Source: Streptomyces sp. NBC_01497 (GTDB lineage Bacteria > Actinomycetota > Actinomycetes > Streptomycetales > Streptomycetaceae). Taken from it: a stretch of 64,000 nucleotides of DNA. Made by a program: the position numbers and the translations under genes. The notes beneath the pieces were generated by a model. That model did no database searches. It was not told where the DNA came from and saw only the letters and a program-made list of their open reading frames with translations. The stretch lies in the NCBI RefSeq assembly GCF_036250695.1, contig NZ_CP109427.1, forward strand, positions 8,488,979 to 8,552,978, in the 5' to 3' direction. Within the stretch, counting starts at the first letter, position 1, and every line of letters begins with the position of its first letter. Below are positions 31,705 to 64,000 of the stretch, one piece after another.

Positions 31705-31729
31705 CACGATCGCGCTCAGAAATCCGAGT

Positions 31730-33795: not shown

Positions 33796-33850
33796 ACCAC
33801 ACCCGCCTCAGCCTCAAGAAGCAGGCGCTACGGACCCCACCACACATCTG

Positions 33851-33904
33851 AACGCCCCGGCACCACCCCGCCCCGCAGGCGGCGGCTGACGACGCCGGGG
33901 CGTT
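33851..33904. promoter_or_regulatory. 11-bp inverted repeat between effector and CD-NTase genes
   Basis: AACGCCCCGGC (33851-33861) pairs with GCCGGGGCGTT (33894-33904). It could attenuate read-through from the effector gene, so that effector and cyclase are set at different levels, or it could be an operator. Confidence 0.45.
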
Positions 33905-34032
33905 GTCAGTGGCGGGTCCTAGGCTTGTCGGAAGGAACAGCTGTCGGTGCTGCCAGCTCGCCCGCCGACCGTCTCCTGACGGCCGGCGGCGGCGCGCACT
34001 CGGGCTGAACGACGAGCCTGAGGAGGCACGTG

Positions 34033-37374: not shown

Positions 37375-37408
37375 CCACCCCGGCCGGACCCCGATGGAGG
37401 TCTCTTCC

Positions 37409-41523: not shown

Positions 41524-41524
41524 G

Positions 41525-47342: not shown

Positions 47343-48470
47343 TCAGCTGAGCTGGGCTGTTGCGGCGTCGATCTCTTTCATGGTGATGTTCTCGCTGCCG
47401 GTGCGGATCGCGATGACGGCGGCGGTGGAGATGACGTAGGTGAGGGCTTTGAAGTAGCCGCCGGTGCGCCGGTGCAGTTCGGCGGCGTGTTTGCTCAGGG
47501 CGTTTCCCTCGAGCCGGTACAGGCTCAAGTCGGCCTCGAAGCCCGCCAGTACGCGCCGGAACATCTCCTGTTCCTTGGCCTTGGTGCCCAGGGGCAGGGG
47601 GTGCAGCCAGGTCACCGGCAGCAGCGCGGCGGGGGAGGGCGAGACGGGCTCAGCCGGTTGTCCCGCCTGCTCGAGCCGTACCCGGTTCTCCTCGCTGACC
47701 CGGGTCAGGTCCTGGGCCAGGATGCGGGCCTGGTGCAGGAGGTGGCTGGCGCCGGTGCCGCAGAAGATGAGCGAGATGCCCAGCTTGTCGCGCAGGTAGT
47801 CGAAGTAGGGCAGTACGTTCGCCAGTTGCGGCGGCGAGGCCCGGTTGATGTCGTCGATGAGCAGCAGACGGGTCTGTGCCGTTTCCAGGACGTAGTTGAC
47901 CGGCAGGGTCACGTCCTGGTGCCGGCGCATCTCCAAGACTTCCGCGAGGCTCTTCGGCTCGGGGTTGAGACCCAGGTAGGATCCGATCTCCCAGACCCAG
48001 TTCACCCTCAGCTCCGGGTCCGCGGGGGTGGTGATGTGCACCACCGGGATCGTGTTTGGCTGCCTGCCGTTCGTGGCGGCCTCGACCTCCTGCTGGGCGG
48101 TGCGCCCGATCGCACGCAACAGGCAGGTCTTGCCGGTGCCTGCGGGCCCGTCGATGACATGGTCCATCAGGCCCTCACGGCACCCGCTGTTGCGGTGGAC
48201 CGCCTCGACGACCGTCTCTTGCATGTGCGTCATCGCGTCGGTGGGCACCATCCGCAGGTGCCGGTGGTAGGCGATGGCCTGCTCGTCCGACTTCCTGTCC
48301 TCGGCGGGACTGCTGCCCGCCGCCAGAACGGGCGGGTTCACCTCCTCGTCGACGAAGTGGGTCCAACCGGTGAGCTGGAACAGCGGAAGAGGCCGCATCG
48401 GAGTGTCCCTCAGCTGCTGACGCAGACGGGCTTCACGCTTGTTACGCAGTTCGACGGACGCCTTCATCAC
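47343..48470 (-). CDS. TniB/TnsC-like AAA+ ATPase of an older Tn7-like element
   Basis: A 375-residue AAA+ protein with Walker A DGPAGTGKT (107-115), Walker B RLLLIDDINR and the sensor region ISLIFCGTGAS. TnsC/TniB links target-site selection to the transposase. The gene looks intact. Its partner TnsB immediately upstream (48590 onward) is truncated, and no TnsA or TniQ belonging to this set is present, so the system is almost certainly nonfunctional. It is distinct in sequence from the TnsC at 51000-52070. Confidence 0.8.
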   Translation of the reverse strand: MMKASVELRNKREARLRQQLRDTPMRPLPLFQLTGWTHFVDEEVNPPVLAAGSSPAEDRKSDEQAIAYHRHLRMVPTDAMTHMQETVVEAVHRNSGCREGLMDHVIDGPAGTGKTCLLRAIGRTAQQEVEAATNGRQPNTIPVVHITTPADPELRVNWVWEIGSYLGLNPEPKSLAEVLEMRRHQDVTLPVNYVLETAQTRLLLIDDINRASPPQLANVLPYFDYLRDKLGISLIFCGTGASHLLHQARILAQDLTRVSEENRVRLEQAGQPAEPVSPSPAALLPVTWLHPLPLGTKAKEQEMFRRVLAGFEADLSLYRLEGNALSKHAAELHRRTGGYFKALTYVISTAAVIAIRTGSENITMKEIDAATAQLS

Positions 48471-48589: not shown

Positions 48590-50125
48590 CTACATCTCCC
48601 ATACGTCGTCCTCGGCACCGTCATCACCGTCCGGATCGAGGTCGTCGAGGAGTTCCGCTTCGACGACCTCGTAGGCAACTGCCGGTGTTTCGGCCGTGGG
48701 GGCGTCCGGCGGGCTGCTGTCGCCGTTGTCGGGGAAGAGCGCTGCCAGTGGATGCGGGGCCTGCCCGTTGTCCGACGGCTGGTCCGCGCTGCCCGGGCCT
48801 GCGGGCAGCGCGGGGGAGACGGGTGCGGGCGGGGGAGCCAGAGGAGAGATGGGCAGCGCTGGGTAGGGACGCAGCGTCGACAGGTCGAACTCTTCCAGGT
48901 CCGCGTAGGGGTCGTGGGAGGGCTGTTCGGTCTCCAACGCCAGCCCCTGGAAGGGTGGTTCGGCTCCGGTGCGCTTGGGCGGCGGCCTGCGGCTGCGCCG
49001 CCTGCGTTCGCGCTGCGCCAGGGCCAGGGCGATCGCCTCCTCGTCCTGCTCGCTGCCGCCTGCCGCACGGTGCTGCTCGGCATGTTCCTGCCACATGTCT
49101 GCGGTCCACGGATCGTGCAGCAGGTGCCGGAGCCGGAAATCGCAGGTCACCCAGGTGTTGGCCGTGTGGTCGTAGAGCCACACCCGCTCGGGGCGGTAGG
49201 GGTTGAAGCGGCATTCCCACTTGCCCCCTGCGCCGGGCAGCTTCGAGCCGCCGCGCAGGAGGACCTCGCGGTAGTGTGCGGCGTCCTGAGCGACGGGCTG
49301 ATAGGTCCGATAGTCGATCATGAAGCCGCCCTTGCCGGGGGTGACCCACTGCGACAGCAGGAAGAAGCGGTTCTGGGTGGGGGAGAGCGGCACGGCCCGG
49401 TAGCCGCTGCGGGCCACCTGGACGGCGTACATGTCGTTGGGTGACAGCACGATGTGGGGGCGGAACGGGTCGCGCAGCCCCGCATCGGGGGTCTGCTGGT
49501 ACTCCAGTGCCACCCATTCCTGGGCCATCTGCTGGAGCTCGGCGATCGTGTACAGCGGCATCCGCTCGATGCCGCGGCCGCGCTTCTTGTGGCTGCGGCC
49601 CTGCCAGCCGTGCCGCACGTGCTGGCTGAAGCGGTGCGCGAGGGTGATGAAGAAGTGCTCGACGAGCGGCTTGTCGGGCGCGGTTCTCTTGCGCGCCGGG
49701 CGGCGGGCGATGCGCAGCCGGTCGCAGACCTCGGTGAAGTGCTCGCTGACGTAGGGGCTGCCCTGGTCGTAGATGATCAGTTCGGGGCGGATGACCGGGC
49801 GGGCGGCGGTGGCCTCGGTGAACCGTTCATCCGCAGCGCGAAGCGCGCCGAACGGCAGGCTGGAGGCGGCGGCCGCGCTGAGCGGGTCCCAGCCGGGCAT
49901 CACCGGCCAGGGCGCGAGAGCCTGGGCCAGCATCAGGGTCAGGTCGATCGCCCGGGTCGCCCGGCCTGCGTGTCCGTTCTCGGCGTCCCGGGGGCGACTG
50001 GGCGTGATCATCAGCGCGCACATGCTGTGGGTGGCCACGTCGATCAGTGAGGACATCTCGGTGGCGGTGGGCCGGCCGTCGTCGCCGCGGGCCAGGATCC
50101 GCAGCGGCGTGGTTGTGATTCCGAG
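48590..50125 (-). pseudogene. TnsB-like transposase, N-terminus lost within the catalytic domain
   Basis: The retained part starts inside the RNase-H-like DDE domain (TTTPLRILARGDDGRPTATE). It has the second Asp (LIIYDQGSPYVSEH, D97 from ATG 50056) and the Glu (APDKPLVEHFF, E133), then the beta-barrel and C-terminal TnsC-contact region. The first catalytic Asp should sit just before TTPLRIL; the frame instead reads NLGITTTPL. Upstream of about 50125 it becomes unrelated Pro/Ala-rich translation. About 250 N-terminal residues are therefore gone. The break falls exactly where the repeats of the next element begin. Confidence 0.8.
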
Positions 50126-50285
50126 GTTCGTAGCTGGTGTGGCGAGGGCTGCTTGAGCTGGGGTGTTGGTGATTCCCTGATAAGGAGTCCGGCGCTTACG
50201 GGGAGCTGGAGACAGTGGTGATGGGGCGTCTGGCCTGTGGTTGTTCGGGGTTCGTTGATAACGGCGGTGTGGTGTTGGTGATGGG
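50113..50285. repeat. Candidate transposon end with TnsB-site-like repeats
   Basis: GGTGTTGGTGAT occurs identically at 50162-50173 and 50271-50282. Related copies are TTGTGATTCC (50113-50122) and GTGGTGAT (50215-50222). All are in the same orientation, with 50-60-base spacing. Ordered imperfect repeats next to a broken TnsB gene and before the tns operon fit the end of a Tn7-like element, where TnsB binds several sites. The exact terminus is not resolved; TGT at 50115 or 50164 are options. Confidence 0.5.
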
Positions 50286-50359
50286 CTCCGGTATCTAAAG
50301 GGTCGGTGCGGGTTTGTGCTGGTCAGCGGCTTGCTGCATGGTCGGGGTCTGCTGGTGGG

Positions 50360-50992
50360 CTATGCCGTTGCTGTCGGGTGGGGGTTGCCGCCGGTCCAGT
50401 ACAGGGCGGTGTCGATGTCGCGTGCGGTCCAGCCGGCGGCGTGTGCTCCGCCGTGGTGGAGGAGGTCGTCGAGGAGCTGGAGGTAGCGGCCGTAGCGTCC
50501 CGGTGTGGGGGTGAGGGGGAGGCGGAGGGTGTCGAGGGCGTGTTGGACGCGGCGGTCGTAGACGGCCATCCGCTGGGGTGCTGCTGCGGTGAGGATGGCT
50601 GAGGCGAGGGCGTCGCCGGTGCGGAAGCCGGGCAGTTCCCAGATGATGCCGCGCCCCGTGCGGGCGGCCTCCCCGCGCGAGATGGTGGTGTCGCGGACGG
50701 CGGTGACGACTCGCTCGGTGACGGCTCGGACCTGGGTGTCGGGCAGGGACATCAGTTCTGTCACCCAGCGGGTTTGTGCGGAGAGCCGTTTCCAGACGAC
50801 GAGGGCTGCGATGTCCGTCTTGCCGAGGCTGCCGGTGTGCTCGGTTCGCTGCGCGACGTCGTGGAGGACCTCGTCGTAGTGGGGTGAGACGCCTGCCAGG
50901 TAGTCGGCGCGGGCGGGGATCAGGGTGTCCCAGGCCTGCCGGCAGAGGGCAGCGAACTCGTCGCCGCCTGGCGTTTCGGTGGTCGTCTTCAT
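50360..50992 (-). CDS. Uncharacterised protein of the tns operon, possibly helix-hairpin-helix
   Basis: A 210-residue mostly helical protein starting at ATG 50992, eight bases from the TnsC stop and therefore co-transcribed. The central segment LPGFRTGDALASAILTAAAP then QRMAVYDRRV has the shape of a helix-hairpin-helix element followed by a conserved Asp, as in DNA-glycosylase-like folds. This is a pattern judgement only. It is the most inward gene of the element, next to the proposed transposon end. Its position suggests an accessory transposition or end-binding role. Confidence 0.6.
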   Translation of the reverse strand: MKTTTETPGGDEFAALCRQAWDTLIPARADYLAGVSPHYDEVLHDVAQRTEHTGSLGKTDIAALVVWKRLSAQTRWVTELMSLPDTQVRAVTERVVTAVRDTTISRGEAARTGRGIIWELPGFRTGDALASAILTAAAPQRMAVYDRRVQHALDTLRLPLTPTPGRYGRYLQLLDDLLHHGGAHAAGWTARDIDTALYWTGGNPHPTATA

Positions 50993-50999
50993 GTCCGCA

Positions 51000-52070
51000 T
51001 CATGCCGTTCTGGCGGGTTGGCGGGTTCGGGGGCGGCTTGCTTCTTCGGCGAGGTGGTCGAGCTGGATAGCTTCGAGCGCCTTTTTGGTGATGCGTTCGG
51101 TGCCGTCGCAGATGGCGGTGATCGCTGCTTGGCGGATGAGGCGGGCGAGGCTTCCGATGCGGCCGGCGGTGCGCTGGTGGAGGTAGGAGGCGTGGCGGGG
51201 GAGTGTGCCGGGTGTGTGCTGGGTGAGGTCGAGGGCGTTCTCCATGTCGGTGATGAGATCGGTGAAGGGGCGGGTGTTTCCGTGGCGGGCGGGGAGGGGG
51301 CCGCAGGTGATGAGGCTGGCGCGGCCGGCGAGTTGGGCGCCGCGTACTCCGGAGAACAGCGTGGTTGAGGCGACGTCGATGCCGGTGTAGACGAAGGTTG
51401 CTCTGATGCGTTCGGTGAGGTCTTTGAGCAGGTCGGCGGCTTCGGCGCCGGTGGTCGTGCGCGGGTTGAGGCGGTGGATCTCGTCGATGAGGACCAGGCG
51501 GACGCCAGCGGCGGTGTAGGTGTGGCAGACGGCCTCGGTGATCTGGGTCTGGGTCATGCGGGTGGTGACGGGGATGCCGAGGTAGCGGGCGAATTCGGTG
51601 GCCAGGGTTTTCGCGGTGGCGCCGGCCGGCACCAGCAGGTACGCGACCGGTGTCTGCTGGTGGGTGCGTCCGGGCGGGGCGGGGTGTTTTCGGGTGTGGG
51701 CGAGGTGGCAGGTGCGTCCGACTTCGAGGAGGGCGGTCGTTTTCCCGGCCGCGGCGGGGCCGGTGACGATCAGTGAGGGCCGGGCGGTGGTCTGCTGGTG
51801 GCGGCCGAGGAGCATCAGGGTGCGGACCTGGGTGGCGAGGGTGTTGATGGCGGGGGTGCGGACGGTGACGAACGCGGAGTGGTAGGCGAGGCGTTCTTCC
51901 GTGCTGCGTGGGGTGTCGCCGGGCTGGGGCGGGGTGAGGGGCGGGGTGGTGGCGAAGCGTTGCCAGCCCTGCCAGGTGGTGATCGGCCATTCCGGCTCGA
52001 CTGCCTGCGTGCCAGGCGGCGGTGCCTCGGTGTTGGCGGGGGCGTGGTGGTTGCGTGCGGGGCTGGTCAC
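51000..52070 (-). CDS. TnsC/TniB-like AAA+ regulator
   Basis: A 356-residue ATPase with Walker A GPAAAGKT (104-111), Walker B VRLVLIDEIHR (DE at 196-197) and the sensor ATFVYTGIDVAST. It should assemble on DNA at the site chosen by TniQ and activate TnsA/TnsB. The frame stays open far upstream, but the GTG at 52070 overlaps the TnsB stop (GTGA) and family similarity begins shortly after, so I start it there. Confidence 0.85.
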   Translation of the reverse strand: MTSPARNHHAPANTEAPPPGTQAVEPEWPITTWQGWQRFATTPPLTPPQPGDTPRSTEERLAYHSAFVTVRTPAINTLATQVRTLMLLGRHQQTTARPSLIVTGPAAAGKTTALLEVGRTCHLAHTRKHPAPPGRTHQQTPVAYLLVPAGATAKTLATEFARYLGIPVTTRMTQTQITEAVCHTYTAAGVRLVLIDEIHRLNPRTTTGAEAADLLKDLTERIRATFVYTGIDVASTTLFSGVRGAQLAGRASLITCGPLPARHGNTRPFTDLITDMENALDLTQHTPGTLPRHASYLHQRTAGRIGSLARLIRQAAITAICDGTERITKKALEAIQLDHLAEEASRPRTRQPARTA

Positions 52071-54229
52071 CAGTTGAGGGCTTCCTGAGCGGGGTCGTAG
52101 AGGCCGAGTCCGGTGTACGGGACGGGCACGTCGCTGGTGTCGCCGGGTCCGAGTTCGTCTTCGCTGTCGGCCTGTTCTGGTTCGTCGGGCTGGTCGTCGA
52201 GGTCGTCGAGGTCGTCGATGCTGTCGTCGTCCCAGGCGTCGTCCCAGGCGTCGGCCTGCGGGGCCGGATCGTAGGGAGGGCGGGTGCCGGCTGCGGGCGG
52301 GGGTGTTTTCAGTGGTGCGGCGCGGGTGATCAGGCGCTGTTCGCCGGGGGTAGCGGTGCCGGCGTGGGCGCGGCGCATGAGCTGGTCGAGGGCGTCGGCG
52401 AGGTCGGCTTCGTGGGTGTCGCGGTCGCTGTGGCGGGTGGTGATCGTTTTGATGTGCTGCCAGGTGGCGCTGTTGAACGGCTGGTGAATGTGGTCGCGGT
52501 GGATCCACGGGATCTCTGTCAGGTGTCCGTCGGGCAGGCGGATCCAGACCTGGCGGGCGTCGTGGGGGTTGGTGTGGACTTCCCATTTGCCGCCGCGTGC
52601 GGTGACGGGGGAGGGCTGACCGCGGTAGGGGGCGAGGACATCGTGGTCGTAGGTGCGGTGGTCGACGCGGATGCCGCGTTCGGTGATGGCCTGCCAGCGC
52701 ACCGGCAGCAGTTCGAGGTAGTCGCTGCCGCTCAAGGGGAGGGGCACGTAGCCGGTCACGGCGATAAGCGCGGCCCACATCTGGTTCGGGGTGAGAGCCT
52801 TCTTCGGCAGGGTGGGGTGGCGCAGGCCTTCGTGGGGGCGGTGGTGGTAGTGGATCAGCCATTCGTCCAGAAGGTCCTGCATCTGGGCGACGCTGAAGCA
52901 GGCCTCGCCTTCGGCGTCCGGTCCGCGGCGGGTGACGTCGGAGCCGGTGTAGCCGGGCAGGTGCTGGCACAGCAGGGCGTTGACCGTGCCGAAGGTGCGT
53001 TCGACGATGCCTTTGGCGGCGGGGGCGTGGGGCGGGGTGGGCTGGACGCTGATGCCGAGGGTTTCGCAGGCGGCGGTGAACGCCGTGGACAGGTAGACCT
53101 TGCCCCGGTCCACGACGATCGTCTCGGGCACCACCACCGGCCGGGCAGCCGCGCCCTCGAGCCGTTCGTCCAGGTCCATCAGCCGCTGTAGCTGGGGGAG
53201 TTGGGTGTGGGCGAGGCACAGTGCGTCGGGCCAGGAGGGACGGGCCGCGTGCGGGACGGCCATCTCGGCGAGCAGCAGGGCCGCGTCGACTGCCTTGGTG
53301 CCGGCGGGCCGCAGGACCGCGGCGAGGATGGCGCGGGTGGCGACGTCGACGGCGATCGTGAGTTCGGGCCGGCCGGTGGTGCCGTCGTCGAAGACGGCCA
53401 GGACGTCCAGCCGTGTGGTGTCGACCTGCACCTGCTCGCCCGGCCGCAGCGCCACGGTCGGGGTGAACGCCTGTCCGCCGGTGGGGGAGGGGAGAGTACG
53501 GGCGGGGCGGTGGGGGTGTTCGGCAGGGTCGGCGAGCTGGTGGACGAGCCGGTAGAAGGTGGCCTGGGAGGGGGCGGGCACTGTGCCGCGGCCGTGCCGG
53601 TCGGTAAGGATCTGTGTGACCAGGGGCATCAAGCCCTTGACGGTGCCCTTGGAACGGCCGCGCTGGCGGCGCAGCGCTTCCTCGATGGCGGCGATGACGC
53701 GTTCGTCGGTGCGCCCGGTAGGCACGGGCCGACGGGTGGTGCGGTGGTCAACCAGCCCCCACAGTCCCTGCTTGCGGTAGGCCAGGCGCATGCGCTGCAC
53801 CGTGGTCCGGGAGACAGGGCCGAAGCCGATCGCGGTCAGCTCCGTGGCCTTGGCCTCCTCGCGCTGTGCGAGGGTGAACCGGTCGGGGTCGTACTCGGCC
53901 CGGGGCGCCCCGTCGCTGTCCGTCCCGCCGGGCAGGCCGGTCTCCACCTCGCGGATGTGCCGCTGCCAGGCCAGTGCCTTGCGCCGCGCGTCCTCGGGCG
54001 CGGTTTCGAACAGACCCCACTGCGTTGCGGCCTGGGGCATTTCGGCGCCCACGATGGTGAAGGACGGGTCGGCGAACAGGTGTCCGGCCACGACCGTCTC
54101 GTCTTCGCCTGTTTCACCGGCGAGGTGGACCTGCTGCCCCGCCATCGCGATGACCTGCCAGGTGCGGTCACGGAAGCGGACGTGCGCTCCGACCTGCAGC
54201 ACCGGCCGGCCGCCACGCCGCACGCTCAC
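52067..54229 (-). CDS. TnsB/TniA-like DDE transposase
   Basis: A 720-residue retroviral-integrase-type transposase. N-terminal DNA-binding helices include a helix-turn-helix (FGPVSRTTVQRMRLAYRKQG). The DDE triad is complete: D270 (VQVDTTRLDV), D374 (TIVVDRGKVYLS), E410 (AAKGIVERTFG). Next come a Mu-type beta-barrel and a C-terminal acidic tail (DDDSIDDLDDLDDQPDE) likely to contact TnsC. It binds the transposon ends and joins them to the target. It overlaps both neighbouring genes by four bases. Confidence 0.9.
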   Translation of the reverse strand: MSVRRGGRPVLQVGAHVRFRDRTWQVIAMAGQQVHLAGETGEDETVVAGHLFADPSFTIVGAEMPQAATQWGLFETAPEDARRKALAWQRHIREVETGLPGGTDSDGAPRAEYDPDRFTLAQREEAKATELTAIGFGPVSRTTVQRMRLAYRKQGLWGLVDHRTTRRPVPTGRTDERVIAAIEEALRRQRGRSKGTVKGLMPLVTQILTDRHGRGTVPAPSQATFYRLVHQLADPAEHPHRPARTLPSPTGGQAFTPTVALRPGEQVQVDTTRLDVLAVFDDGTTGRPELTIAVDVATRAILAAVLRPAGTKAVDAALLLAEMAVPHAARPSWPDALCLAHTQLPQLQRLMDLDERLEGAAARPVVVPETIVVDRGKVYLSTAFTAACETLGISVQPTPPHAPAAKGIVERTFGTVNALLCQHLPGYTGSDVTRRGPDAEGEACFSVAQMQDLLDEWLIHYHHRPHEGLRHPTLPKKALTPNQMWAALIAVTGYVPLPLSGSDYLELLPVRWQAITERGIRVDHRTYDHDVLAPYRGQPSPVTARGGKWEVHTNPHDARQVWIRLPDGHLTEIPWIHRDHIHQPFNSATWQHIKTITTRHSDRDTHEADLADALDQLMRRAHAGTATPGEQRLITRAAPLKTPPPAAGTRPPYDPAPQADAWDDAWDDDSIDDLDDLDDQPDEPEQADSEDELGPGDTSDVPVPYTGLGLYDPAQEALNW

Positions 54230-55050
54230 TGCCCCTCCCCGCTGCCCGGGCCGCCGTGGCCGTTCGCACCGCCGGCGCCGGTGCTGACGAGGACCCGCTC
54301 GTTAAGCGGTACGTCCAGGGGCGCGGTGAGGTGTCCGTGCCACAGGGCGTGGAAGACGGCGGGCAGGACTTCGATCGGGTCGCCCACCGCTTCGACGCCC
54401 TCGATCAGCGGCTGCGGCTGTGCGAACACCTCACGCAGGGCGGCCGCGAGACGGGGATGGCCGGCGTTGCGGGGGTGGCGGTACCCGGCCAGCCATTTCA
54501 GGTTTGCCGAAAGCGTCTTCTCCAGCGGCTCAAGGCGCCGGTAGCTCCAGCCGGCCTGCGCGCACGCCGCCTCAAGGACCGTCGCAGCACGCTGCGCCCG
54601 CTCGCCGCCGGCCTCCAGGTGGTTGGGGCAGTCGGCCAGCAGGGCGGTGCCGTCGCGGTGGCGGGCGAAGAGCTGCGGCACCCACGAGCGGACCTGGCCG
54701 CGCGCGTCCCGCCACAGCAGACGCACCGGCCGCCCGGCCAGGCCGACCACCTCGGGGTCGCGGTCCAGCACCGTCAGCTGCGCCCGCATCGCGGCCGACC
54801 CGCACGCCACATGCCGGCCGGTCGTGGCCGACCACCACTGCCCAGGACCCCACCGCCGCCTCGGCACCACCGGGAACGCCGACACCGGCTCCAACTCCTC
54901 GAAGGCCACCGCGAGAACCGCGTCCGCCCACCGCTGCTGCACCACCTGCCCGAGAGGATCGACGAAGACCGCCTCCCACTCGGATCCGGTATCCGTCTGC
55001 ATGCGCTGTGAGCGGCCACCTGCTGCGGCCGCTGCGTCCTTGCTGCCCAC
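54226..55050 (-). CDS. TnsA-like protein with degenerate nuclease site
   Basis: A 274-residue protein located and coupled like TnsA. It keeps the family landmark WWSATTGRHVACGS (72-85) and VPQLFARHRDG (124-134). In actinobacterial TnsA-like endonucleases I expect Glu shortly after the first landmark, Asp in place of this Gln (xPDxFA), and a basic residue on the next strand. Here these positions read SAAMRAQ, VPQLF and LLADCPN. If so, it cannot make the 5' cuts that turn Tn7 into a cut-and-paste element. GTG 55050 and ATG 55002 are both possible starts. Confidence 0.65.
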   Translation of the reverse strand: MGSKDAAAAAGGRSQRMQTDTGSEWEAVFVDPLGQVVQQRWADAVLAVAFEELEPVSAFPVVPRRRWGPGQWWSATTGRHVACGSAAMRAQLTVLDRDPEVVGLAGRPVRLLWRDARGQVRSWVPQLFARHRDGTALLADCPNHLEAGGERAQRAATVLEAACAQAGWSYRRLEPLEKTLSANLKWLAGYRHPRNAGHPRLAAALREVFAQPQPLIEGVEAVGDPIEVLPAVFHALWHGHLTAPLDVPLNERVLVSTGAGGANGHGGPGSGEGQ

Positions 55051-55180
55051 GCGCCCCAGTCAAGCCCGTCCTGCCAGTGCGGCGGGCCGCTTCACGGATT
55101 TTGATCACGAGTGCCGGGCCATGAGGTAGTGCCCTGCGGATCGTGGTCCCTGCAGAGCCTGCCTGCCTCCTGACACTTAC

Positions 55181-56587
55181 TCACCGCTCCTTTCCCGGCC
55201 GCTCGTTGCGCTGGTCCGCGAGTGCCTCGGCCAGGACATCGGCCGGCAGACGGGCCCAGCGCGCCAGGTCCTCCAGCGCCATCCCGGCCGCGAAGGCTGC
55301 TGCTGCGCTCTCCCGGACGGCCTGCTCGATCAGTGTGGCGGCATGGCCGAGGTTGCCCAGCAACTGCTGCGCGGCGTCGGCGGTCTTGCCGTACTGGGCG
55401 CCGCGCAGCTGGGTCAGCTGCTCTTCGGCGTCGTTGACCAGGCTGCTGATCAGCGCCCGCTGCTCGGCCGGCACCGCAGAGCGCCACGTGGTGCCCGAGC
55501 CGGGCGCGCTACGTTCCTTGGACAGGACGCGCAACTGTCCGGCCATGGTCGCGGGCTGGTGTTCCTGGCGCAGCCACCACGGATCGTTGTCGTAGCCGGG
55601 CGGGCCGCCGGCGCCACGACGGATGCGGATGACGGCGCCCATCCACGAGGTCAGCGGGCCGCCGTAGTCGGTTGCCGCCAGCGGCCCCAGCCACCCCCGC
55701 CCGACGCGCTCACCGAGTCGGCGGCAGAACGCCCCGTCGGAGGGCAGCGCCCGCGGCCGCCCGGCACCGCTGTCCCTCCACACCAGCTCGGCCATCGCCG
55801 GGTCCAGCAGCGCGTCGGCCACGGCCACCACCTCGGGGAAGACGACCGCGTCCCGGCCCACGATCCGCCACCGCTCCAGCTCTGTACCGGCGTTGCCGCC
55901 CGCGACCTGGTGCAGCCGCTGAGGCCACAGCGTCTCCCGCTCCCAGTGCAGAGCCTGCTCCCACCACCGGGCCACCACCGCATAAGCCAGAGCGAACACC
56001 CTCTCCGGCTCCGCTCCAGCCCGTACCGCCCGCCGCGTCACACCAGTCCACCGCCGCTGCGCCGCGGCCACTTCCGGCACACCCCGTACGTCCAGATACT
56101 CAAGAGGCTGGTCGGCGTCGGCGTCCAGGAGCCACCGCCCGTGCCGGACACACACCCGCTCCCATCGCGGCGCGTACCGCACCACCCGCACGGCCGTCCC
56201 CGCGCGCCGGGCCGCGCACAGACGGCAGCCGAAGGCGACCGGCCCGGCGACCGCACCCCCGGTCCGCCACGCGGCCGCCGGCACGCTGTTCTTTCTGGCC
56301 GACAGCTTGGCGTCCTGCTGTCCCCAGGACGGCAACGCCCGCGCCAGCACGTCTTCCTCGACGCCGCACATGCCTGCCAGTAGCTGTCGTCCGGGCGGGT
56401 TCAGCAGCACCTCGGCGTCGGCCCGCGTGCCCCCGCCGTCGTGCCCCGGCGGGTAGTTGCGCCACTGCCAGCACGACCGCAACACCTTCGCTTCCATCCC
56501 GTAACGGCCCGCGATGCGGCAGATCAGCGACGAGGTCGTCTCCCCCTGAAGGGGAACTGTCCGCAGCAGGCCGGGGTGATGGGTCAC
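55181..56587 (-). CDS. TniQ target-selection protein
   Basis: A 468-residue TniQ/TnsD-type protein. The N-terminal signature is LLRTVPLQGETTSSLICRIA. A zinc site is made by CRLC (residues about 121-124) and CVRH (about 145-148). A long helical DNA-reading C-terminal part follows. TniQ proteins choose the insertion site and recruit TnsC. It is similar in its first ~200 residues to the longer TniQ-HA at 56828-60103, so the two are paralogues with different reading parts. Confidence 0.82.
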   Translation of the reverse strand: MTHHPGLLRTVPLQGETTSSLICRIAGRYGMEAKVLRSCWQWRNYPPGHDGGGTRADAEVLLNPPGRQLLAGMCGVEEDVLARALPSWGQQDAKLSARKNSVPAAAWRTGGAVAGPVAFGCRLCAARRAGTAVRVVRYAPRWERVCVRHGRWLLDADADQPLEYLDVRGVPEVAAAQRRWTGVTRRAVRAGAEPERVFALAYAVVARWWEQALHWERETLWPQRLHQVAGGNAGTELERWRIVGRDAVVFPEVVAVADALLDPAMAELVWRDSGAGRPRALPSDGAFCRRLGERVGRGWLGPLAATDYGGPLTSWMGAVIRIRRGAGGPPGYDNDPWWLRQEHQPATMAGQLRVLSKERSAPGSGTTWRSAVPAEQRALISSLVNDAEEQLTQLRGAQYGKTADAAQQLLGNLGHAATLIEQAVRESAAAAFAAGMALEDLARWARLPADVLAEALADQRNERPGKER

Positions 56588-56827
56588 TTCACCACGGTCT
56601 CGTGTCCGCCGTCCCGGCGGGCGCTTTTGCAGCGGATGCCCAGGCGCCCCGTCCTCCTGGGGCCGTCACTTCTACTCGACGGAGCCACCTTCAGACCGTT
56701 TTTCCTGCCACCTCCTGCTACCCCTGTGACCTGCGAAGGCGATGCGACAGGCCGGGAGACAGGGGGAGTTGGGAAAAGATCTTGGCCATCGGCACGCCCT
56801 ACGTGATCACTCTCGGAAGTCTCACCG

Positions 56828-59800
56828 TCACGCTTCACGCAAGGTGCCTTGCCGACTCGAAGCCTCAGGGCGGATACCGATGGTGCTCAGCAGGGCCTGT
56901 TGGTGGGGGTGGAGTTGGTGCCAGAGGACGGTTTGTTTACGGGCCCAGCGCTGAAGCTCGGGCGGGAGGGGCTGGCCTGTGGTGCGGAGGGTGCGGTGCT
57001 GGTGGTACTTGCGTTGCCAGGCGAAGGGCCAGGGCGGGTTCCACCAGGGGTCGAGGACGGTGAGTTCTTGCAGGGTGAGGGCGGACAGGAGGCCAGCGCG
57101 GGCTTTGCGCCGTTGCTGGATGAGCCAGTGCCCCAAGGCGAAGCCGTGGTGCTGGGTGTGTTTGAACACGGCTAGGTGGCCGTGGGCGGCGGCGTAGGCA
57201 CGGGCGTGGGGGAGGCCTTCGCCTGCGGGATAGCGGTGCGCGGTTGTAGGAGCCGGTACGGGTTCGGTGGCGGGCGTGGCGCCGAGGTTGGCCAGGAGCT
57301 CTTGCTGGGTGGGATGGAGGCTGTCCCACAGCCTTGTCTGGGTGGTGGCCCAGCGTCGCTGGGCCACGGTCAGGTTGCCGCTGGCAGGGGCGGCGTGTGC
57401 CCGGTGGTAGGCGCGCTGCCACGCCAGGGGCCAGGGCGGGTTCCAGTGCGGGTCAAGGGCGTTCAGCGCGGCGATCCGGGCCGGATCGGTGCGCCCGTCA
57501 GCCACGCGGTGTCGCTGGCGTAGGAGCCAGGTACCGAGGGGATAGCCGTTGTGGCGGGTCCGTTCGGCCACGGCCAGATGCCCGTGTTCGGCGGCATAGC
57601 TACGTGCGTGGGCGAGCCCTGTGTCTACGCGGGCGGGGCTTCGATCGGCTTCGGTCACTGCGCGGGCGACGGCAGAGGAGATGCCGATGTCCGCGAGGAG
57701 ACTCTGCTGATCGAGTTGCAGAACGTCGTGCTGGACGCACTGACGGTGCAGCCACACTGTCACCTCGTCCTCGTCCCTGCCGCGATGCGGGCCAAGCACG
57801 TTCAGCTGGCCTTTCCGCCATCGCTTACGGGCCCGCTGGTAACTCCGCTGCCAGGGAAAGGGCCAGGGCGGGTTCCACCAGGGATCCAGTTCGGCCAGCA
57901 GCCGGCCACGCAGCCACACGCCTTCGGTGGCTTGAGCGTGCCGACGGTCCTGGCGGCGCTGCTCCACCAGCCAGCGGCCCAGGGCAAACCCGTCGTGCAC
58001 GTACTCGGAGGCAACCGCAAGGTGCCCGTTTACCGCGGCGAAGGAACGAGCACTGGCCATGCCGTCCAAAGCCCACAGACCGGCAGCAGCAATCTGCTCG
58101 TTCACGGCCTGGGATGCCCCGGACCCGCCCTGCACTTTCGCGGCTTCCTCGGCTGTGATGCCGATGTCTGCCAGCAGGCGCTGCTGATCGGGGTCCAGAC
58201 GCCGATACGCGGCGCACTGCCGCGACAACCACAGGGCAAGATCTGCTTCGACTCCTGGAAAGCCGCCCCCCACATCGAGCCCGCCCCGGCTCTCCACCAG
58301 CCGCCGGGCCTGTGCGTAGGAGCGCTGCCATGTCAGCACCCAGGGCGGATTCCACCAGGGGTCGACGGCGTCGAGGGCACGGGAGTGCTCCGTAGGTTCC
58401 CGGTTCTCGCGGGCCCTGCGGCGCTGGTGCACGAGCCACGACCTCAGCGGATACCCCTGGTACATCGCGTCCTTGCCCGAGACGGCCAGGTGACCCTGCT
58501 CGGCGACGTAGGACCTGGCGTGCGTCAGCCCCGTTTCGAAGCCGGCCTGGATGGGGATCCGCCGCGGCAGAGCGGTGCGGGCCGCCTCGGCCGTGATCCC
58601 GATGTCCGCCAGCAGACGCTGCTGCTCAGGATGGAGAGTGCTGTAGTGGGTGCACTGCAGATACAGCCACTCGCCGTTGAGGATCTGGGTGCCGGGGAAT
58701 CCCGCGGCCGCATCGGGCGGGCCGGCGACTGCGGCGTGATCGCGCGCCCGGTAGTACGAGCGCTGCCACTGCACCGACCAGGGGACGTTCCACCACGGGT
58801 CCAAAACCGCGAGAGCCTGTGCACGGTCCGGCCCTATTGCCCACGCTCTGGTCTGGACGTTGCTCAGCCATTCCCCAAGCCGATAGGAATCGATCACGGT
58901 GTCCTGCGGGACTGCGAGATTGCCGTGTTCGCGCACGTAGCGGCTGGCATGCACCAGGCCGGCCGCGAAGGCTTCGTCCGCCTGCCGGCTGTGTCCGCGC
59001 CGCCGTTTGCCTTCCGCGCTACGGCCGCCGGACCCCACATGCGCCCGTACCGCGAGTTCGTCCACCAGAGGGAGCTGACGGTGCGCCGGAGCCACCGCCC
59101 ACATCGCCTGTTCCGCAGCCCTTGTCCCACCCTGTGCCCGCACGCACTGATAAGCCCACGCAAAGAGAGGACCTGACGTCTCCTGCGCCAGCTGCTCCAC
59201 GTACCAAGGCCTCCGCACACAGCCCGCAACAGCAGTTAAAAGCGACGGCAGATCAGCCAGGCGAAAAGGAAGATGGCCCTGTGCATCGGCCACCACGCGG
59301 CGCCGGAAGCCGTCACTGGCAAGCAGAGTGGCCAGAGCAACGGTCTCCGGATAGATCACCAGTTCCCGAGCCACAACCCGCCACACATCCTGGTCCAAGC
59401 CGTCACTGTCCAGGCTCCGCAGCCGCGCCGACCACAAATGCTCCTGCGGCCACGTCTGCCACCACCACGACGACGCCACCGCCCGCGCCACCTCAAAAGC
59501 ATCCGACGCCAGCGCGGAACGACGCAGCAGCCTCACGTGACGGCGCTGGGCGTCCAGCACCTGCCCGCACCCGGCCAGGTCCATCACTCGGCCCGCCGTG
59601 CCCGGGATATGCATCAGCCACCGGCGATGAGACGGGCACACCCGCTGCTGCGGCCCCAGATACAGGCGAGCGGTCTCCCTCCTTCCGGTACGCCGCGCCG
59701 TGCATTCAGGGCAAGCCGGCCCCCAGCACCGAACCTTCTCCGCGGTGTGGTGAAACTGCGCTGCCGGCCCTATAGCGAACCGTCGACGGGGCTCCTCCTG

Positions 59801-60103
59801 CGCCCAGGCAGGCAGCGCCCGCAGCAGACGATCCTCCGGGACGCGACACAGCTGCGCTACCCGGTTCCGGGCCTCCTGGTTCAGGTAGATCTCGCTGTCC
59901 AGCTGCGCCCTGCCCATCGCGTTCGGCAGCCCGTCCACATCGACGACCGCCGCCAGCAGGTCCCTGAACGCCATGCCGTAGCGCGCCGCCAGCCGCGTCA
60001 GGAACGACTGCGTCATCTCGCCCTGCAGCGGTCCCACGCGCAGCACACCGCTCGGCAGCGCGAGCCCCTCAACTGCTGCCGGTGCCTTACTCTCGCCGCT
60101 CAT
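56828..60103 (-). CDS. TniQ fused to five helicase-associated (HA) repeats
   Basis: A 1091-residue protein. Residues 1-345 are TniQ-like: SGVLRVGPLQGEMTQSFLTR, zinc site C131-x2-C134 with C156-x2-H159. From about residue 372 to the end come five ~145-residue units. Each has HARSYAAEHGHLAV-type, YPLGTWLLRQRR-type, LDPWWNPPWPFAWQR-type and LHPxQQELLANLGI-type segments. These are the HA domains otherwise found behind the helicase in telomere-associated (TtrA) proteins, including the next gene. I infer that the HA array reads or docks on telomeric DNA or proteins and directs TnsC there. ATG 60103 is chosen (GGGGTGG upstream). Confidence 0.85.
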   Translation of the reverse strand: MSGESKAPAAVEGLALPSGVLRVGPLQGEMTQSFLTRLAARYGMAFRDLLAAVVDVDGLPNAMGRAQLDSEIYLNQEARNRVAQLCRVPEDRLLRALPAWAQEEPRRRFAIGPAAQFHHTAEKVRCWGPACPECTARRTGRRETARLYLGPQQRVCPSHRRWLMHIPGTAGRVMDLAGCGQVLDAQRRHVRLLRRSALASDAFEVARAVASSWWWQTWPQEHLWSARLRSLDSDGLDQDVWRVVARELVIYPETVALATLLASDGFRRRVVADAQGHLPFRLADLPSLLTAVAGCVRRPWYVEQLAQETSGPLFAWAYQCVRAQGGTRAAEQAMWAVAPAHRQLPLVDELAVRAHVGSGGRSAEGKRRRGHSRQADEAFAAGLVHASRYVREHGNLAVPQDTVIDSYRLGEWLSNVQTRAWAIGPDRAQALAVLDPWWNVPWSVQWQRSYYRARDHAAVAGPPDAAAGFPGTQILNGEWLYLQCTHYSTLHPEQQRLLADIGITAEAARTALPRRIPIQAGFETGLTHARSYVAEQGHLAVSGKDAMYQGYPLRSWLVHQRRRARENREPTEHSRALDAVDPWWNPPWVLTWQRSYAQARRLVESRGGLDVGGGFPGVEADLALWLSRQCAAYRRLDPDQQRLLADIGITAEEAAKVQGGSGASQAVNEQIAAAGLWALDGMASARSFAAVNGHLAVASEYVHDGFALGRWLVEQRRQDRRHAQATEGVWLRGRLLAELDPWWNPPWPFPWQRSYQRARKRWRKGQLNVLGPHRGRDEDEVTVWLHRQCVQHDVLQLDQQSLLADIGISSAVARAVTEADRSPARVDTGLAHARSYAAEHGHLAVAERTRHNGYPLGTWLLRQRHRVADGRTDPARIAALNALDPHWNPPWPLAWQRAYHRAHAAPASGNLTVAQRRWATTQTRLWDSLHPTQQELLANLGATPATEPVPAPTTAHRYPAGEGLPHARAYAAAHGHLAVFKHTQHHGFALGHWLIQQRRKARAGLLSALTLQELTVLDPWWNPPWPFAWQRKYHQHRTLRTTGQPLPPELQRWARKQTVLWHQLHPHQQALLSTIGIRPEASSRQGTLREA

Positions 60104-60196
60104 GCCACCCCACTCCGTCGGCCCCGCTTCTCGTAACCACCTGCGAGCCACACCCAGTTACGGAACGGAGGGGTCTGCGCACCGATCAAGCAGCAT

Positions 60197-62848
60197 TCAT
60201 GCCCACTCGACTCCCAGCTCCGCGAGGGCAGCGCGCTGCTCCTGCGCGAGCTTGTCGCGGCGGGTCTTGGTGTTGGAGACCCACACGCCCAGCTTCACGG
60301 TCACCGGTTCAGCCTCGCCGCCGACCGTGATCCGCTCTGCATGAGCCCTGGGGACGCGGTCGTGGCCTTCGCGGGCGATGTACTGAGCGAGAGCCGCAAG
60401 GCCCCGCTGGAAGGCCATCGACGCCTTCCCGGAGCCCTTGGTCGTGGTGGCCGGGACGGGCCGTTCGGCAGGCTTCACGCCCAGCCCGGACAGGCGCTGT
60501 TGCTGCTCCTTCGGCAGCTCCGTCCAGGAGCTGACTTGCCGCTGGAGCCATCGGCCAAGGTCATCACCTTCGAAGAGCACGCCCGGCTCAATCTGCGGCA
60601 GCATGCCGTCGGCGTCGACGAGGTCGGCGAGGATGCGGTAGTGGCGTTGCCAGTCCAGCGGCCACGGGCAGTCCCAGTCCTCATCGATGGCGGTCAGGTG
60701 CGCGGCCCGTACCGCGGCGCGCTCGGGGTCCTTCCCGAGGCCGCCCTTGCGGCGCAGATTGGCCATGTGCTGCCCGATGGGCACCATGCCCTTGGCCTCG
60801 CTCTCGCCCCACACGGCGTCCTGACGGGGTGCGAGGTGCCCGGTGGCCCGCCTGTACGAGCGCAGCGCGGCGAGCTTGGTCTCCCAGGCTTCCTCACCCG
60901 GCTCCCACACCATCCCGGCCTCTTCGGCGTCCAGCAGCTCCTTGCGCCGCTCCTCCAGCTCCCCGGCCCGCAGCGCCTTCCGCTGCTTGTGGACCCAGCG
61001 CCCAAGGGGAAAATCTTTCGTCACCCCGACCTGGGTCTCTGTGTCGTAGGGAACGGCGTAGAGGCCGGTGATCTCGTTCTCCGCCCGCCAGCGGAGCAGG
61101 GCCTGGTAGCCCTCCAGCCAGACGAGGCTGTCCGGCCGGTAGACGCGGGTACGCAGGAACGCGGCGATCGTGGCGGCGTCCCGGGGAGTGCTGAAGTGGA
61201 GCAGAGCGGATTCGGCGGCGGCCTGGGTGTCGTCGTGCTCCTGGTCCTCGCCGTCGCCCGCGCCGTCGGCGCCGATGATCTGGCCGTTCTCGTCTCGCTG
61301 GATGTGGACCTTGCGCTTGCCGCTGGTGAGGGCGCGGGAGGCGAGCTGCTCAACGAGTCGTTCATCATGACTGCGGAGCCCTTGCAAAACGGCTACAAGG
61401 GGGCGGAACGAGGCGGAGGCGACCATGTCGTTCGGGTCCTCGTTCGGCTCCAGGAAGATCGGCACGATGATCCTGGCCACCTTGGTGGAGCCGTCGCGGT
61501 TCAACCTCAGCGCGCGGCCGATGTTCTGCACGATCTCCACCTGGGAGCCGCGGGTGTCCGCGAAGCAGATCGAGTCGACTCCCCGCTCGCCGGTGATGTC
61601 CACGCCCTCACCGAGAACGCGAACGCTGGCGAGGAATGCCCGGTGCACCCGGCGCCCGGCCGCGTCGATGCCATTGGCGAACTGCCGCAGCGCCTCCCGC
61701 CGCTCGGCTACGAGGTGGTCACCGCACAGCCACGCCGACCACACCCGGTCCGGCGGGACGTGGCGGCCGGCCTCCAGCTCGTAGAACTCCGCGTCGATCG
61801 AGGACGCGGGGAGCTTGTCGGCGGCGGCCAGATCGGCGTCGGAGGCGTCGTTCAGGAACAGCGCGGCAGCCGTCTCGGGCAGCTTGTCCGCGAACGCACG
61901 GGCCTCTTCGACCTTCTGGTGGAACGTCATGACCGTACGCAGGTTGTACGCGGCGGCGTGCTCCAGGAGCGCGGTCTGCAACAGCGCCAGGCGCCTGCCG
62001 CGCCGCGCCTCCTCCGACTCCCCGAGGACAGGCGAGGGGTCGCGGATCTCCAGCACGTCGATCTCGAACCCGGCAAGGATTTCGCGCTCGATGGCCTCGC
62101 TCAGACCGAGCTCTGCGAGCCACGCGCCGTACGTGCCCTCCGGGTCGTCCGACATGGTCGCGATCTCCGCCTCCTGGCCGTCCGCGCCCTTCTGCGGGCG
62201 GGCCGCGGCGAGGATACGCGGGGTGGCGGTGAGGTAGAGCCGGAAGTCCGCCGGGATACGGGCGTTGTCGTGGATCGCCGCCCACGGACGCCCAAGATCA
62301 CCAGCGGTTCCATGTGCCTCATCCACGATGGCGAGGTCGAAGCCGTCCATGCGCTGCCCGTAGAGCCGCTCCCCGCCCGCCAGAGCGGCCTCCAGCGGCC
62401 CGCGAACCCTCCGCTGGCCCTCGGGCGCGTCGATGTCCTCCCGGTCCACGAGAGAGGCGTACGTGGCGAACACGACCACGGGCCCGTGCCCGGCCCACAG
62501 AGCGAGCTGGATCGGGTTCGTGGTGGTGCGCACCCCGAGCGAGCCCAGGACCGCGTCGTTCTCCAGCGAGCACACGGCGACCATCGGCGCCCGGTGGCCC
62601 ACCGCCCGCCACGCCTGGGCGGTCTGCGCGAGCAGGTCCAGGGTCGGCACCGTGATGAGGATCCGGCCGTCCGCGAACGACTCCAGCGCGCACGCAGCAG
62701 CGGTGATCGTTTTGCCGGATCCGGTCGCGGAGACGATCGTGCCCCGGGCACCCTGCGGGGGCGGAGATGATCTTGCAGTAAATTCTACCCATCTGCGGAA
62801 ACTCGTTTTCTGGTCCAGTTGGTGTTTCCGAAGCTGTACGTGCGGCAT
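60197..62848 (-). CDS. ttrA: TtrA-like telomere-associated helicase
   Basis: An 883-residue SF2 helicase. Motif I is ATGSGKT; the DEAH box is DLAIVDEAHGTAG; motif VI is QNIGRALRLNRDG. The last ~280 residues carry HA modules (AALRSYRRATGHLAPRQDA, IDEDWDCPWPLDWQRHYRI, LPKEQQQRLSGLGV). TtrA-type genes sit next to the telomeres of Streptomyces chromosomes and linear plasmids. I start it at ATG 62848 because the helicase fold begins there (LRKHQLDQ); the frame is open further upstream. It ends 94 bases before the TniQ-HA gene, on the same strand. Confidence 0.85.
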   Translation of the reverse strand: MPHVQLRKHQLDQKTSFRRWVEFTARSSPPPQGARGTIVSATGSGKTITAAACALESFADGRILITVPTLDLLAQTAQAWRAVGHRAPMVAVCSLENDAVLGSLGVRTTTNPIQLALWAGHGPVVVFATYASLVDREDIDAPEGQRRVRGPLEAALAGGERLYGQRMDGFDLAIVDEAHGTAGDLGRPWAAIHDNARIPADFRLYLTATPRILAAARPQKGADGQEAEIATMSDDPEGTYGAWLAELGLSEAIEREILAGFEIDVLEIRDPSPVLGESEEARRGRRLALLQTALLEHAAAYNLRTVMTFHQKVEEARAFADKLPETAAALFLNDASDADLAAADKLPASSIDAEFYELEAGRHVPPDRVWSAWLCGDHLVAERREALRQFANGIDAAGRRVHRAFLASVRVLGEGVDITGERGVDSICFADTRGSQVEIVQNIGRALRLNRDGSTKVARIIVPIFLEPNEDPNDMVASASFRPLVAVLQGLRSHDERLVEQLASRALTSGKRKVHIQRDENGQIIGADGAGDGEDQEHDDTQAAAESALLHFSTPRDAATIAAFLRTRVYRPDSLVWLEGYQALLRWRAENEITGLYAVPYDTETQVGVTKDFPLGRWVHKQRKALRAGELEERRKELLDAEEAGMVWEPGEEAWETKLAALRSYRRATGHLAPRQDAVWGESEAKGMVPIGQHMANLRRKGGLGKDPERAAVRAAHLTAIDEDWDCPWPLDWQRHYRILADLVDADGMLPQIEPGVLFEGDDLGRWLQRQVSSWTELPKEQQQRLSGLGVKPAERPVPATTTKGSGKASMAFQRGLAALAQYIAREGHDRVPRAHAERITVGGEAEPVTVKLGVWVSNTKTRRDKLAQEQRAALAELGVEWA

Positions 62849-62959
62849 GGAGAACTTTCTTTCAGTGAGGTCTACGGTTCGTTGTCCGACAATGAAGCCG
62901 AGGTGATTGCGGTGTACTGGCGGTGATGGACGTAGCTCTGGTTGGGATGTTGGGGGACG

Positions 62960-63571
62960 ATGCGGGAGATGGATGGGGCAGCGAAGTTGGTAGAGGCGGC
63001 GGGTTGTGGCGATCTGGAGCTGATGACAAGTCTGCTGGGCAAGGGCACACCGGTCGACGGCAGAGATCGAGAGGGCCGTACTCCTCTGGATCGTGCTCTG
63101 TGGGCGGGGCGGCACGGAGCTGTCTGTCTGCTCCTGGCTGCGGGCACGAACACTGAACAGCCCATCGGGCAGTACGCCGAGACGCTGCCACTGCGCTTCA
63201 CCGCTGAGCGTGGAATGCAGACCATGGCCCGCATTCTGCTGGAGGCCGGGGCAGAGCCTGATGGCCGACTGTGTGAGGGGCGGGCAACCGCCTTGATGGT
63301 GGCGGCCACCGAAGGACAGGAGGGCATCGCTGAGATGCTGCTGGACCACGGAGCATGCCTGGAGTCGGTGGGACGGGGCCGGACACCGCTGGAATGGGCG
63401 GCGTCCGGGGGCAGGCCGGCAGTCGTCCGGCTGTTGCTGGACCACGGCGCCACCCGGATAGCCGAGGCACTGGCCCAAGCTGGCCGTGGCGCCAACCGCT
63501 GGAAACACACTCCTGAGCGCCAAGCAGAGTACACGGAGACAATCTCCATGCTCCTGGCCGCAAGCAACTGA
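62960..63571 (+). CDS. Ankyrin-repeat protein
   Basis: A 203-residue protein of four to five ankyrin repeats: LVEAAGCGDLELMTSLLGKG, REGRTPLDRALWAGRHGAVC, ATALMVAATEGQEGIAEMLL, GRTPLEWAASGGRPAVVRLL. ATG 62960 has GGGGGA directly upstream. It is the last gene before the telomere-like sequence and is divergent from the helicase across ~110 bases. Partners are unknown. Terminal genes are often lost or gained with the end. Confidence 0.75.
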   Translation: MREMDGAAKLVEAAGCGDLELMTSLLGKGTPVDGRDREGRTPLDRALWAGRHGAVCLLLAAGTNTEQPIGQYAETLPLRFTAERGMQTMARILLEAGAEPDGRLCEGRATALMVAATEGQEGIAEMLLDHGACLESVGRGRTPLEWAASGGRPAVVRLLLDHGATRIAEALAQAGRGANRWKHTPERQAEYTETISMLLAASN

Positions 63572-64000
63572 CCCTGAACCGCCGTTCCTCTCTCAGAATT
63601 CCGGAAAGGTTCCCGGATGGCTGGGGGTATCCCGCCTTTCCGCCAACAATACATGGTGCATCAACCGTGATGCACACGGTCCACTAGAACCCACACGAAC
63701 GAGCCCCCCACCCCTCGCAGCCAGCCCGGCCCGCGCCAGCGGGCCCCAACGGGCCTGGAGGCGCAGCCGGAAGGACCGTCAGGCGGGGGAGCGCAGCGGA
63801 CCCGCCCCGGGCCGAAGCGAAGCGAAAGCCCCCAGCGAAGGCGCAACCTTCACCCCGTTCCGGGAGCGCAGCGAACGGAACCTCACCCCACGGGCGCAGC
63901 CCGTGGGGTGAGTGGCCGCGCAGCGGGCCACCAGCGCTCCCGCGGAGCGGAGCGCAACCACCTGCGCAGCAAGGTGGTTCGCTTGCATTGCGCGCAGCGC
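63572..64000. other. Subterminal telomere-type region, no gene
   Basis: No coding region is seen. The first ~140 bases are ordinary. From 63728 the sequence is a close series of short GC-rich palindromes (separate entry). Confidence 0.7.
63728..63979. repeat. Telomere-type palindrome cluster
   Basis: GGCCCGC/GCGGGCC (63728-63734, 63739-63745); CCGTTC/GAACGG (63855-63860, 63873-63878); CTCACCCCACGGGC/GCCCGTGGGGTGAG (63882-63895, 63899-63912, loop GCA); TGGCC/GGCCA (63913-63917, 63926-63930); GCGCTCC/GGAGCGC (63934-63940, 63949-63955); AACCACCT/AGGTGGTT (63956-63963, 63972-63979, loop GCGCAGCA). Hairpins with GCA-type loops are the hallmark of Streptomyces 3' overhangs that are patched by terminal protein. 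Confidence 0.75.

What the first reader, a model, noticed from the sequence alone, without database searches (positions are those of the whole stretch)
50115..64000. A Tn7-like transposon whose outer boundary appears to be the telomere
A complete tnsABC plus two tniQ genes, all on one strand, lead without interruption into a TtrA-like helicase and telomere-type palindromes. I see repeats that could be a transposon end only on the inner side. The simplest reading is an element that mobilises a whole chromosome end: one end is a TnsB-bound end, the other is the telomere. Such elements have, as far as I recall, recently been described for linear bacterial genomes. This locus would be a well-preserved example with its own helicase.
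Basis: partly seen in the sequence, partly recalled or inferred. Interest (0 to 1): 0.95.

Follow-up and report, generated by a model that had tools for sequence, protein, structure and literature searches.

The report
Transposon ending in a bacterial telomere
A 13.9-kb block carrying Tn7-type transposition genes sits at all four ends of this Streptomyces genome's two contigs, joined to three different sequences at one exact inner base and ending outward in the telomere, so it is likely a mobile element that carries the chromosome end with it; such telomeric transposons are a recently named class, and this one lacks the DNA-cutting residues that would let it cut itself free, so it is predicted to spread by copying.

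Summary
The window ends at a chromosome contig end. Block 50114-64000 lies at all four ends of the genome's two contigs, 99.96-100% identical, and meets three different inner sequences at one base, each followed by TGTGATTCC. No second TnsB-type end was found near the telomere. Relatives cluster at replicon ends: 30 of 32 listed plasmid records over 100 kb, 4.8 expected. In another genome a related block lies at ends of both contigs.

New here: the TnsA-like subunit has lost its nuclease residues throughout the telomeric clade (64 of 64 readable loci), while relatives inside chromosomes keep them. TnsA state tracks location: 30 of 31 inactive against 2 of 14 intact within 100 kb of a contig end. 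This predicts replicative spread. The block cuts into tnsB of an older, different element of the same kind: serial telomere takeover.

Telomeric transposons are already published (Hsieh et al. 2025; citation seen, text not held), so this is a new member of a known kind. Movement itself is untested.

The parts
50114..50360 (+). Inner end (predicted TnsB-bound end), starts TGTGATTCCGAGG; point at which three contexts diverge
   Evidence: alignable to inner ends of 13 other loci
50360..50992 (-). 210-aa protein of unknown function, next to tnsC; 544 database homologues, no Pfam or NCBIfam family
51000..52073 (-). TnsC (TniB/AAA ATPase); Walker A GPAAAGKT and Walker B VLIDEIH by eye
   Evidence: the longer ORF 51000-53219 overlaps tnsB in another frame
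52067..54229 (-). TnsB transposase, 720 aa, DDE residues present (QVDTT ... VVDRG ... IVERT) by eye
   Evidence: Tn6677 TnsB E 1.5e-18
54226..55050 (-). TnsA-like subunit with lost nuclease residues (GSAAMR, VPQLFAR, ADCP in place of ESWLER, PDYFAR, VDCR)
   Evidence: predicted fold matches Tn7 TnsA
55181..56587 (-). TniQ-type protein, 468 aa
   Evidence: Same stretch of L038 matched both this protein (34%, 357 aa) and TniQ-HA (44%)
56828..60151 (-). TniQ fused to helicase-associated (HA) repeats, 1107 aa; predicted target selector
60197..62848 (-). Terminal TtrA-like helicase with 4 HA repeats (ORF open to 63523; relatives suggest a start near 62848)
63690..64000 (.). Telomere palindromes; contig end
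47309..50113 (-). Remnant of an older, different Tn7-like element of telomeric type (3' part of tnsB 48590-50056, tnsC 47343-48470), cut by the new element at 50114
   Evidence: 90% to S. cellulosae plasmid NZ_CP109223 24195-26998, where tnsB is annotated complete; homology to it stops at 50113

Best explanation
This block is a Tn7-like element with one predicted TnsB-type end on its inner side and the telomere as its outer boundary, it lies at all four ends of the two contigs of this genome, and because its TnsA-like subunit lacks the nuclease residues it likely spreads by copying its telomere on to other chromosome arms rather than by cutting itself out. Shown: the four copies, the three junctions at one base, the telomere at the outer side, the loss of TnsA's active-site residues in every readable member of the clade, and the decapitated older element under the chromosomal copy. 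Inferred: TnsB joins the inner end (probably two inner ends, held together by the telomere proteins) to a target near another replicon end, choosing it through TnsC with TniQ and TniQ-HA; the 5' strand is not cut; replication from the target runs outward through the element to the telomere, where end-patching by Tap/Tpg finishes it; the old arm end beyond the target is lost and the donor keeps its copy. Tap and Tpg genes are not in the element but lie elsewhere, once on C1 and once on C2.
For: Four copies, 99.96-100% identical, three inner contexts, one junction base (junctions). The 2 and 3 differences of C2's copies from the window are indels in the terminal palindromes. No second end. Location: 30 of 32 plasmid records over 100 kb; 30 of 31 inactive against 2 of 14 intact within 100 kb, 22 of 31 against 1 of 14 within 25 kb, 19 of 20 against 1 of 13 genomes with all readable copies near an end. 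TnsA residues: D absent in 64 of 64 readable loci; in the 120 listed of 511 database homologues, the closest ones, E2 to M in 119, D to Q in 118 (H and R in one each) and R to P in 120. The inactive rows form one side of a TnsB tree. A TnsA active-site mutant gives over 95% cointegrates (PMC8188705, passages). Tap/Tpg in trans. A related block on both contigs of G117 (6,599 bp, 99.97%), on two plasmids of NBC_00984 and on both ends of an S. longwoodensis plasmid, each with different flanks.
Against: No transposition was observed. TnsA loss could be compensated by another nuclease. Identity among copies could be kept by recombination after the first insertions. Clade members lie inside replicons in H102, H107, L051, L072, L120, G204 and, as incomplete genes, G069, G165 and G189. 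TnsA and location are confounded with descent: one or two changes underlie the counts. In one search the count of 16 of 18 against 0 of 6 within 25 kb of a contig end includes L042, which is near only because its contig breaks at the inner end, and contig ends of drafts need not be replicon ends.
Confidence: 0.86

Rival explanations
1. Telomeric element moving by cut-and-paste with two inner ends bridged by the telomeres, the 5' strands being cut by a host nuclease or by a residual activity of TnsA.
For: As I recall it, the published model for telomeric transposons uses two inner ends bridged by the telomere system. TnsA is kept as a well conserved protein with the TnsA fold.
Against: Nuclease residues lost in every readable member; copies remain at all four ends, which copying explains more directly.
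Confidence: 0.25
2. Telomere exchange by homologous recombination between replicon ends, with no transposition; the tns genes are passengers.
For: The two chromosome ends are identical over about 64 kb and symmetrical matches at 113 kb suggest more, so terminal repeats are kept alike. NBC_01362's two ends look recombined inside the element.
Against: All three junctions fall on the same base, at an end conserved in relatives; draft contigs of other species break at the same base. Recombination has no reason to stop there.
Confidence: 0.06
3. An ordinary two-ended Tn7-like transposon that happened to land next to a telomere.
For: tnsABC and tniQ are standard Tn7-like genes.
Against: No outer end; helicase and telomere belong to the block at four ends; the family sits at ends.
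Confidence: 0.03
4. Assembly artefact: one repeat copied on to four contig ends.
For: All four contigs stop at the same terminal base, some 20 bp short of a full telomere; reads could not be checked.
Against: The copies carry different small indels in their last 300 bp; the same pattern in other genomes and in annotated plasmids.
Confidence: 0.04

Closest known systems
Telomeric transposons (Hsieh et al., Science 2025, eadp1973, PMC12664552; text not held, citation seen, content recalled)
   Same: Tn7-like genes, one specific transposon end, telomere as second boundary, replacement of native telomeres; recalled as reported for cyanobacteria and Streptomyces
   Different: Here the nuclease residues of TnsA are lost across the clade, a TniQ is fused to HA repeats, and Tap/Tpg lie outside the element. 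Whether that paper reports any of this I could not check
Tn7 and other Tn7-like transposons
   Same: TnsA fold, TnsB, TnsC, TniQ; TGT-type end
   Different: No second end found; TnsA nuclease residues lost; no single target site seen
Tn5053-like and type V-K CAST elements (no TnsA, copy-and-paste)
   Same: Predicted replicative outcome without 5' cutting (PMC8188705, passages)
   Different: TnsA is present but predicted inactive; outer boundary is a telomere, so no cointegrate is expected
TtrA terminal helicase and telomeres of Streptomyces plasmids and chromosomes (PMC8743542, abstract, outline and passages)
   Same: Inward-transcribed terminal helicase, hairpin telomere, Tap/Tpg in the cell
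   Different: Here helicase and telomere form the outer part of a transposition module

Membership tests
Telomeric transposon | One specific transposon end on the inner side, at a fixed base | tested here: met
Telomeric transposon | Second boundary is the telomere, no second specific end | tested here: met
   (outermost ~20 bp not in the contigs)
Telomeric transposon | Family members lie at replicon ends | tested here: met
   30 of 32; 30 of 31 with readable inactive TnsA; exceptions listed in the report
Telomeric transposon | Movement using two inner ends bridged by the telomere system (recalled) | not testable with these tools
   No experiment possible
Tn7-like transposon | TnsB with DDE, TnsC ATPase, TniQ | tested here: met
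Tn7-like transposon | TnsA nuclease with active-site residues | tested here: not met
   Fold met, residues lost; descent from Tn7-like elements is clear, full family function is not
Tn7-like transposon | Two ends and a target-site duplication | tested here: not met
   One end only; last 5 bases at the junctions GTGGT, GGCAG, CCGAC do not pair up
Archetypal Streptomyces telomere | Hairpin palindromes of the archetypal class, with Tap and Tpg in the cell | tested here: inconclusive
   Layout like pSV2 by eye, 75-77% to three relatives, only a 30-base match to pSV2 itself, first palindrome not in the contig; Tpg and Tap over cut-off on C1 and C2; class name recalled

The most novel reading that the evidence does not exclude
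Streptomyces telomeric transposons are a replicative class that works because TnsA was disarmed: strand transfer of the inner end into another arm, followed by replication out to the telomere, caps the target with a new copy while the donor keeps its own, so one element takes over every end in a cell and then displaces older telomeric elements. TnsA inactivation evolved with the telomeric way of life, possibly twice.
Probability: 0.45. Interest if true: 0.85.

Novelty: new member of a known kind. Interest (0 to 1): 0.62.

Why it matters
It offers a way to explain how Streptomyces telomeres and terminal repeats are swapped and made alike within one cell: a transposon replaces them. The correlation between a disarmed TnsA and the telomeric habit turns the open question of how a one-ended element moves into a bench test with two proteins. 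The stacked remnants show repeated takeover of chromosome ends, and the inner-end motif gives a way to annotate element boundaries in many genomes.

Tried and rejected
Two-ended transposon: no outer end. Linearisation of a circular plasmid in one event: the two C2 junctions lack reciprocal 5-bp duplications, so two events are more likely. A single attachment site: 42 flanks of 200 bp or more (many boundaries only extrapolated, one flank read N) gave a helicase gene at the junction in 6 and genes of another telomeric-type element in 2; in the other 34 none of my reference genes lay at the junction. All 6 helicase cuts keep the 3' part. Of seven helicase cuts, four fall at codons 680-729 of 883, one of these beside an unidentified element (G204), and three at 520, 599 and 832: suggestive only. 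TniQ-HA as the cause of helicase targeting: 984p2, 1362_L and 1650_R landed in a helicase gene though no TniQ-HA gene is annotated in their blocks. Two ends of the internal, live-TnsA relatives: the tnsC side starts TGT-like, the other side stayed unclear. The 210-aa protein as a substitute nuclease: no family found. Sequence and profile searches of TnsA against solved structures gave only weak or designed-protein matches; the fold search found Tn7 TnsA. A first location count (39 of the 90 listed matches: 20 of 21 against 1 of 9) left out matches on long contigs; one search adds them (56 of 90).

Papers: Hsieh et al. 2025 was not held. Searches for telomeric transposons with Tn7 or Streptomyces, for ttrA and telomeres and for inactive TnsA listed, in titles and abstract starts, nothing that describes TnsA loss in telomeric elements; that is not proof that none is in print. 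Passages of PMC10293859, PMC8649781 and PMC12624138 held nothing on this element.

Full report
WHERE IT IS. The window is bases 1-64000 of contig C1 (minus strand) of a two-contig genome of 9,081,801 bp. C1 is 8,552,978 bp and C2 528,823 bp. The genus is taken as Streptomyces: two genomes listed as same genus have contigs of 6,599,506 and 31,259 bp, the lengths of the S. fulvorobeus and Streptomyces sp. IMTB 2501 contigs.

THE BLOCK AT FOUR ENDS. I fetched the last 60 kb of the other three contig ends and compared them with the window. C1's right end is identical over all 59,979 bp fetched; a further 4,000 bp are identical at both ends and symmetrical partial matches at 113 kb suggest a longer terminal repeat. 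C2's ends carry the block as their terminal repeat: 99.986% to the window over 13,887 bp (left) and 99.978% over 13,890 bp (right), 99.964% to each other; other stretches shared by C2's ends are dispersed and mostly inverted or far less alike. All three inner contexts diverge immediately before TGTGATTCCGAGG at window 50114. The differences of C2's copies from the window are small indels in the terminal palindromes.

INNER END. The homologous inner end aligns over about 290 bp in 14 loci, with conserved blocks. Terminal bases differ among subfamilies: TGTGATT here, T(A/G)ACGCT or CTAACGC elsewhere. Seven draft contigs of other species stop within 0-1 bp of it, as expected if several different flanks follow. 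An S. longwoodensis plasmid (14,329 bp identical at both ends, different flanks) and two plasmids of NBC_00984 (9.2 kb, 99.96%) repeat the pattern.

OUTER END. Nothing like the inner end was found at 62.5-64.0 kb (best E 0.063). The terminal DNA folds into hairpins, has the layout of pSV2's end by eye and 75-77% identity to three relatives. The ends of 1362, 984 and 1334, which belong to the same transposon clade, showed no similarity to it at E 1e-3; if those records reach the true ends, TnsABC is indifferent to the outer sequence (inference). Tpg and Tap genes are on C1 near 428-431 kb and on C2 near 484-486 kb, none in the element.

THE FAMILY SITS AT ENDS. Of the 40 best plasmid records listed for TnsB (4194 matched in all), 37 have at least 59% identity; 35 lie within 25 kb of a record end, 30 of them transcribed inward (four of the other five are in records under 40 kb). 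Of the 32 over 100 kb, 30 lie within 25 kb, 4.84 expected. In the genus search 64 of 295 genomes matched, with at most three candidates scored per genome. In G108, G066, G228 and G151 two copies sit symmetrically at both ends of one contig; G047, G082 and G154 also have matches near both ends; G197 has different elements at its two ends.

WHAT THAT PREDICTS. In a Tn7-like CRISPR transposon the TnsA D90A mutant gave over 95% cointegrates, and functional TnsA decides between cut-and-paste and copy-and-paste (PMC8188705, passages). With a telomere as outer boundary, replication would run off the end instead of making a cointegrate: the target arm would be capped and the donor unchanged. This is inference.

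SERIAL TAKEOVER. Just inside 50114 lies the 3' part of a distant tnsB (33% identical to the element's own) and its tnsC. It is 90% identical to an S. cellulosae plasmid in which tnsB is annotated complete and followed outward by TnsA, TniQ and HA helicase genes; homology to that plasmid stops at 50113, and to a second one (L143) at 50119. C2's left copy lies in a helicase gene, with homology stopping at the junction. Two element sets in one orientation were seen in L038, L057 and L072 and partly in L109; L107 showed a second tnsC (5 of 91 loci). L075 and L109 lie on one contig, and G204 C2 carries two elements 29 and 102 kb from its end.

TARGET. Six of 42 flanks are helicase genes, two are genes of another telomeric-type element. 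No single site emerges. TniQ-HA is a plausible selector because it shares HA repeats with the helicase; untested.

LIMITS. No reads, no experiment. Hsieh et al. 2025 could not be read, so the novelty of the TnsA result is open.

Noticed in passing
window 40282-47105 (-): Complete Wadjet set (JetA DUF3375, JetB DUF4194, JetC SMC-like, JetD) directly inside the older element's remnant
   Followed up: partly
window 27834-38269 (+): Further defence-like genes: GmrSD (27834-30077), SAVED (32080-33795), ThiF (35585-36859), nucleotidyltransferase (36956-38269), perhaps CBASS
   Followed up: no
window 38574-40112 (+): ISL3-type transposase; similar DNA within 60 kb of both C2 ends
   Followed up: no
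G204 C2 around 688,863 (L198-L199): A 96% relative of this element is cut in its helicase gene 8 bp from the C2L insertion point; the DNA beyond starts with GTGAC-type repeats and matches no known inner end
   Followed up: partly
element between TniQ and TniQ-HA, window ~56795: In NBC_00212 and G204 extra DNA sits at this point (with an ABC-three component system in NBC_00212, not read in G204); the window copy has none
   Followed up: no
L120 (NZ_CP107767): An inactive-TnsA, TniQ-HA element in a record annotated as circular, with helicase fragments on either side
   Followed up: no
G000:C2:481280-481710: Partial Tpg-like matches below cut-off next to the tap-tpg pair of C2, perhaps a broken gene
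   Followed up: no
L028 and L027 (NBC_01362): The two ends of one plasmid share telomere, helicase and TniQ at 99.9% but their tnsB genes are only 82% alike, a sign of recombination inside the element
   Followed up: no
G069 C1 9476271, G165 C1 11621140, G189 C1 4794949: Incomplete or interrupted TnsB genes of the clade 142 kb, 389 kb and 4.8 Mb from a contig end; perhaps relics of arms once terminal
   Followed up: partly
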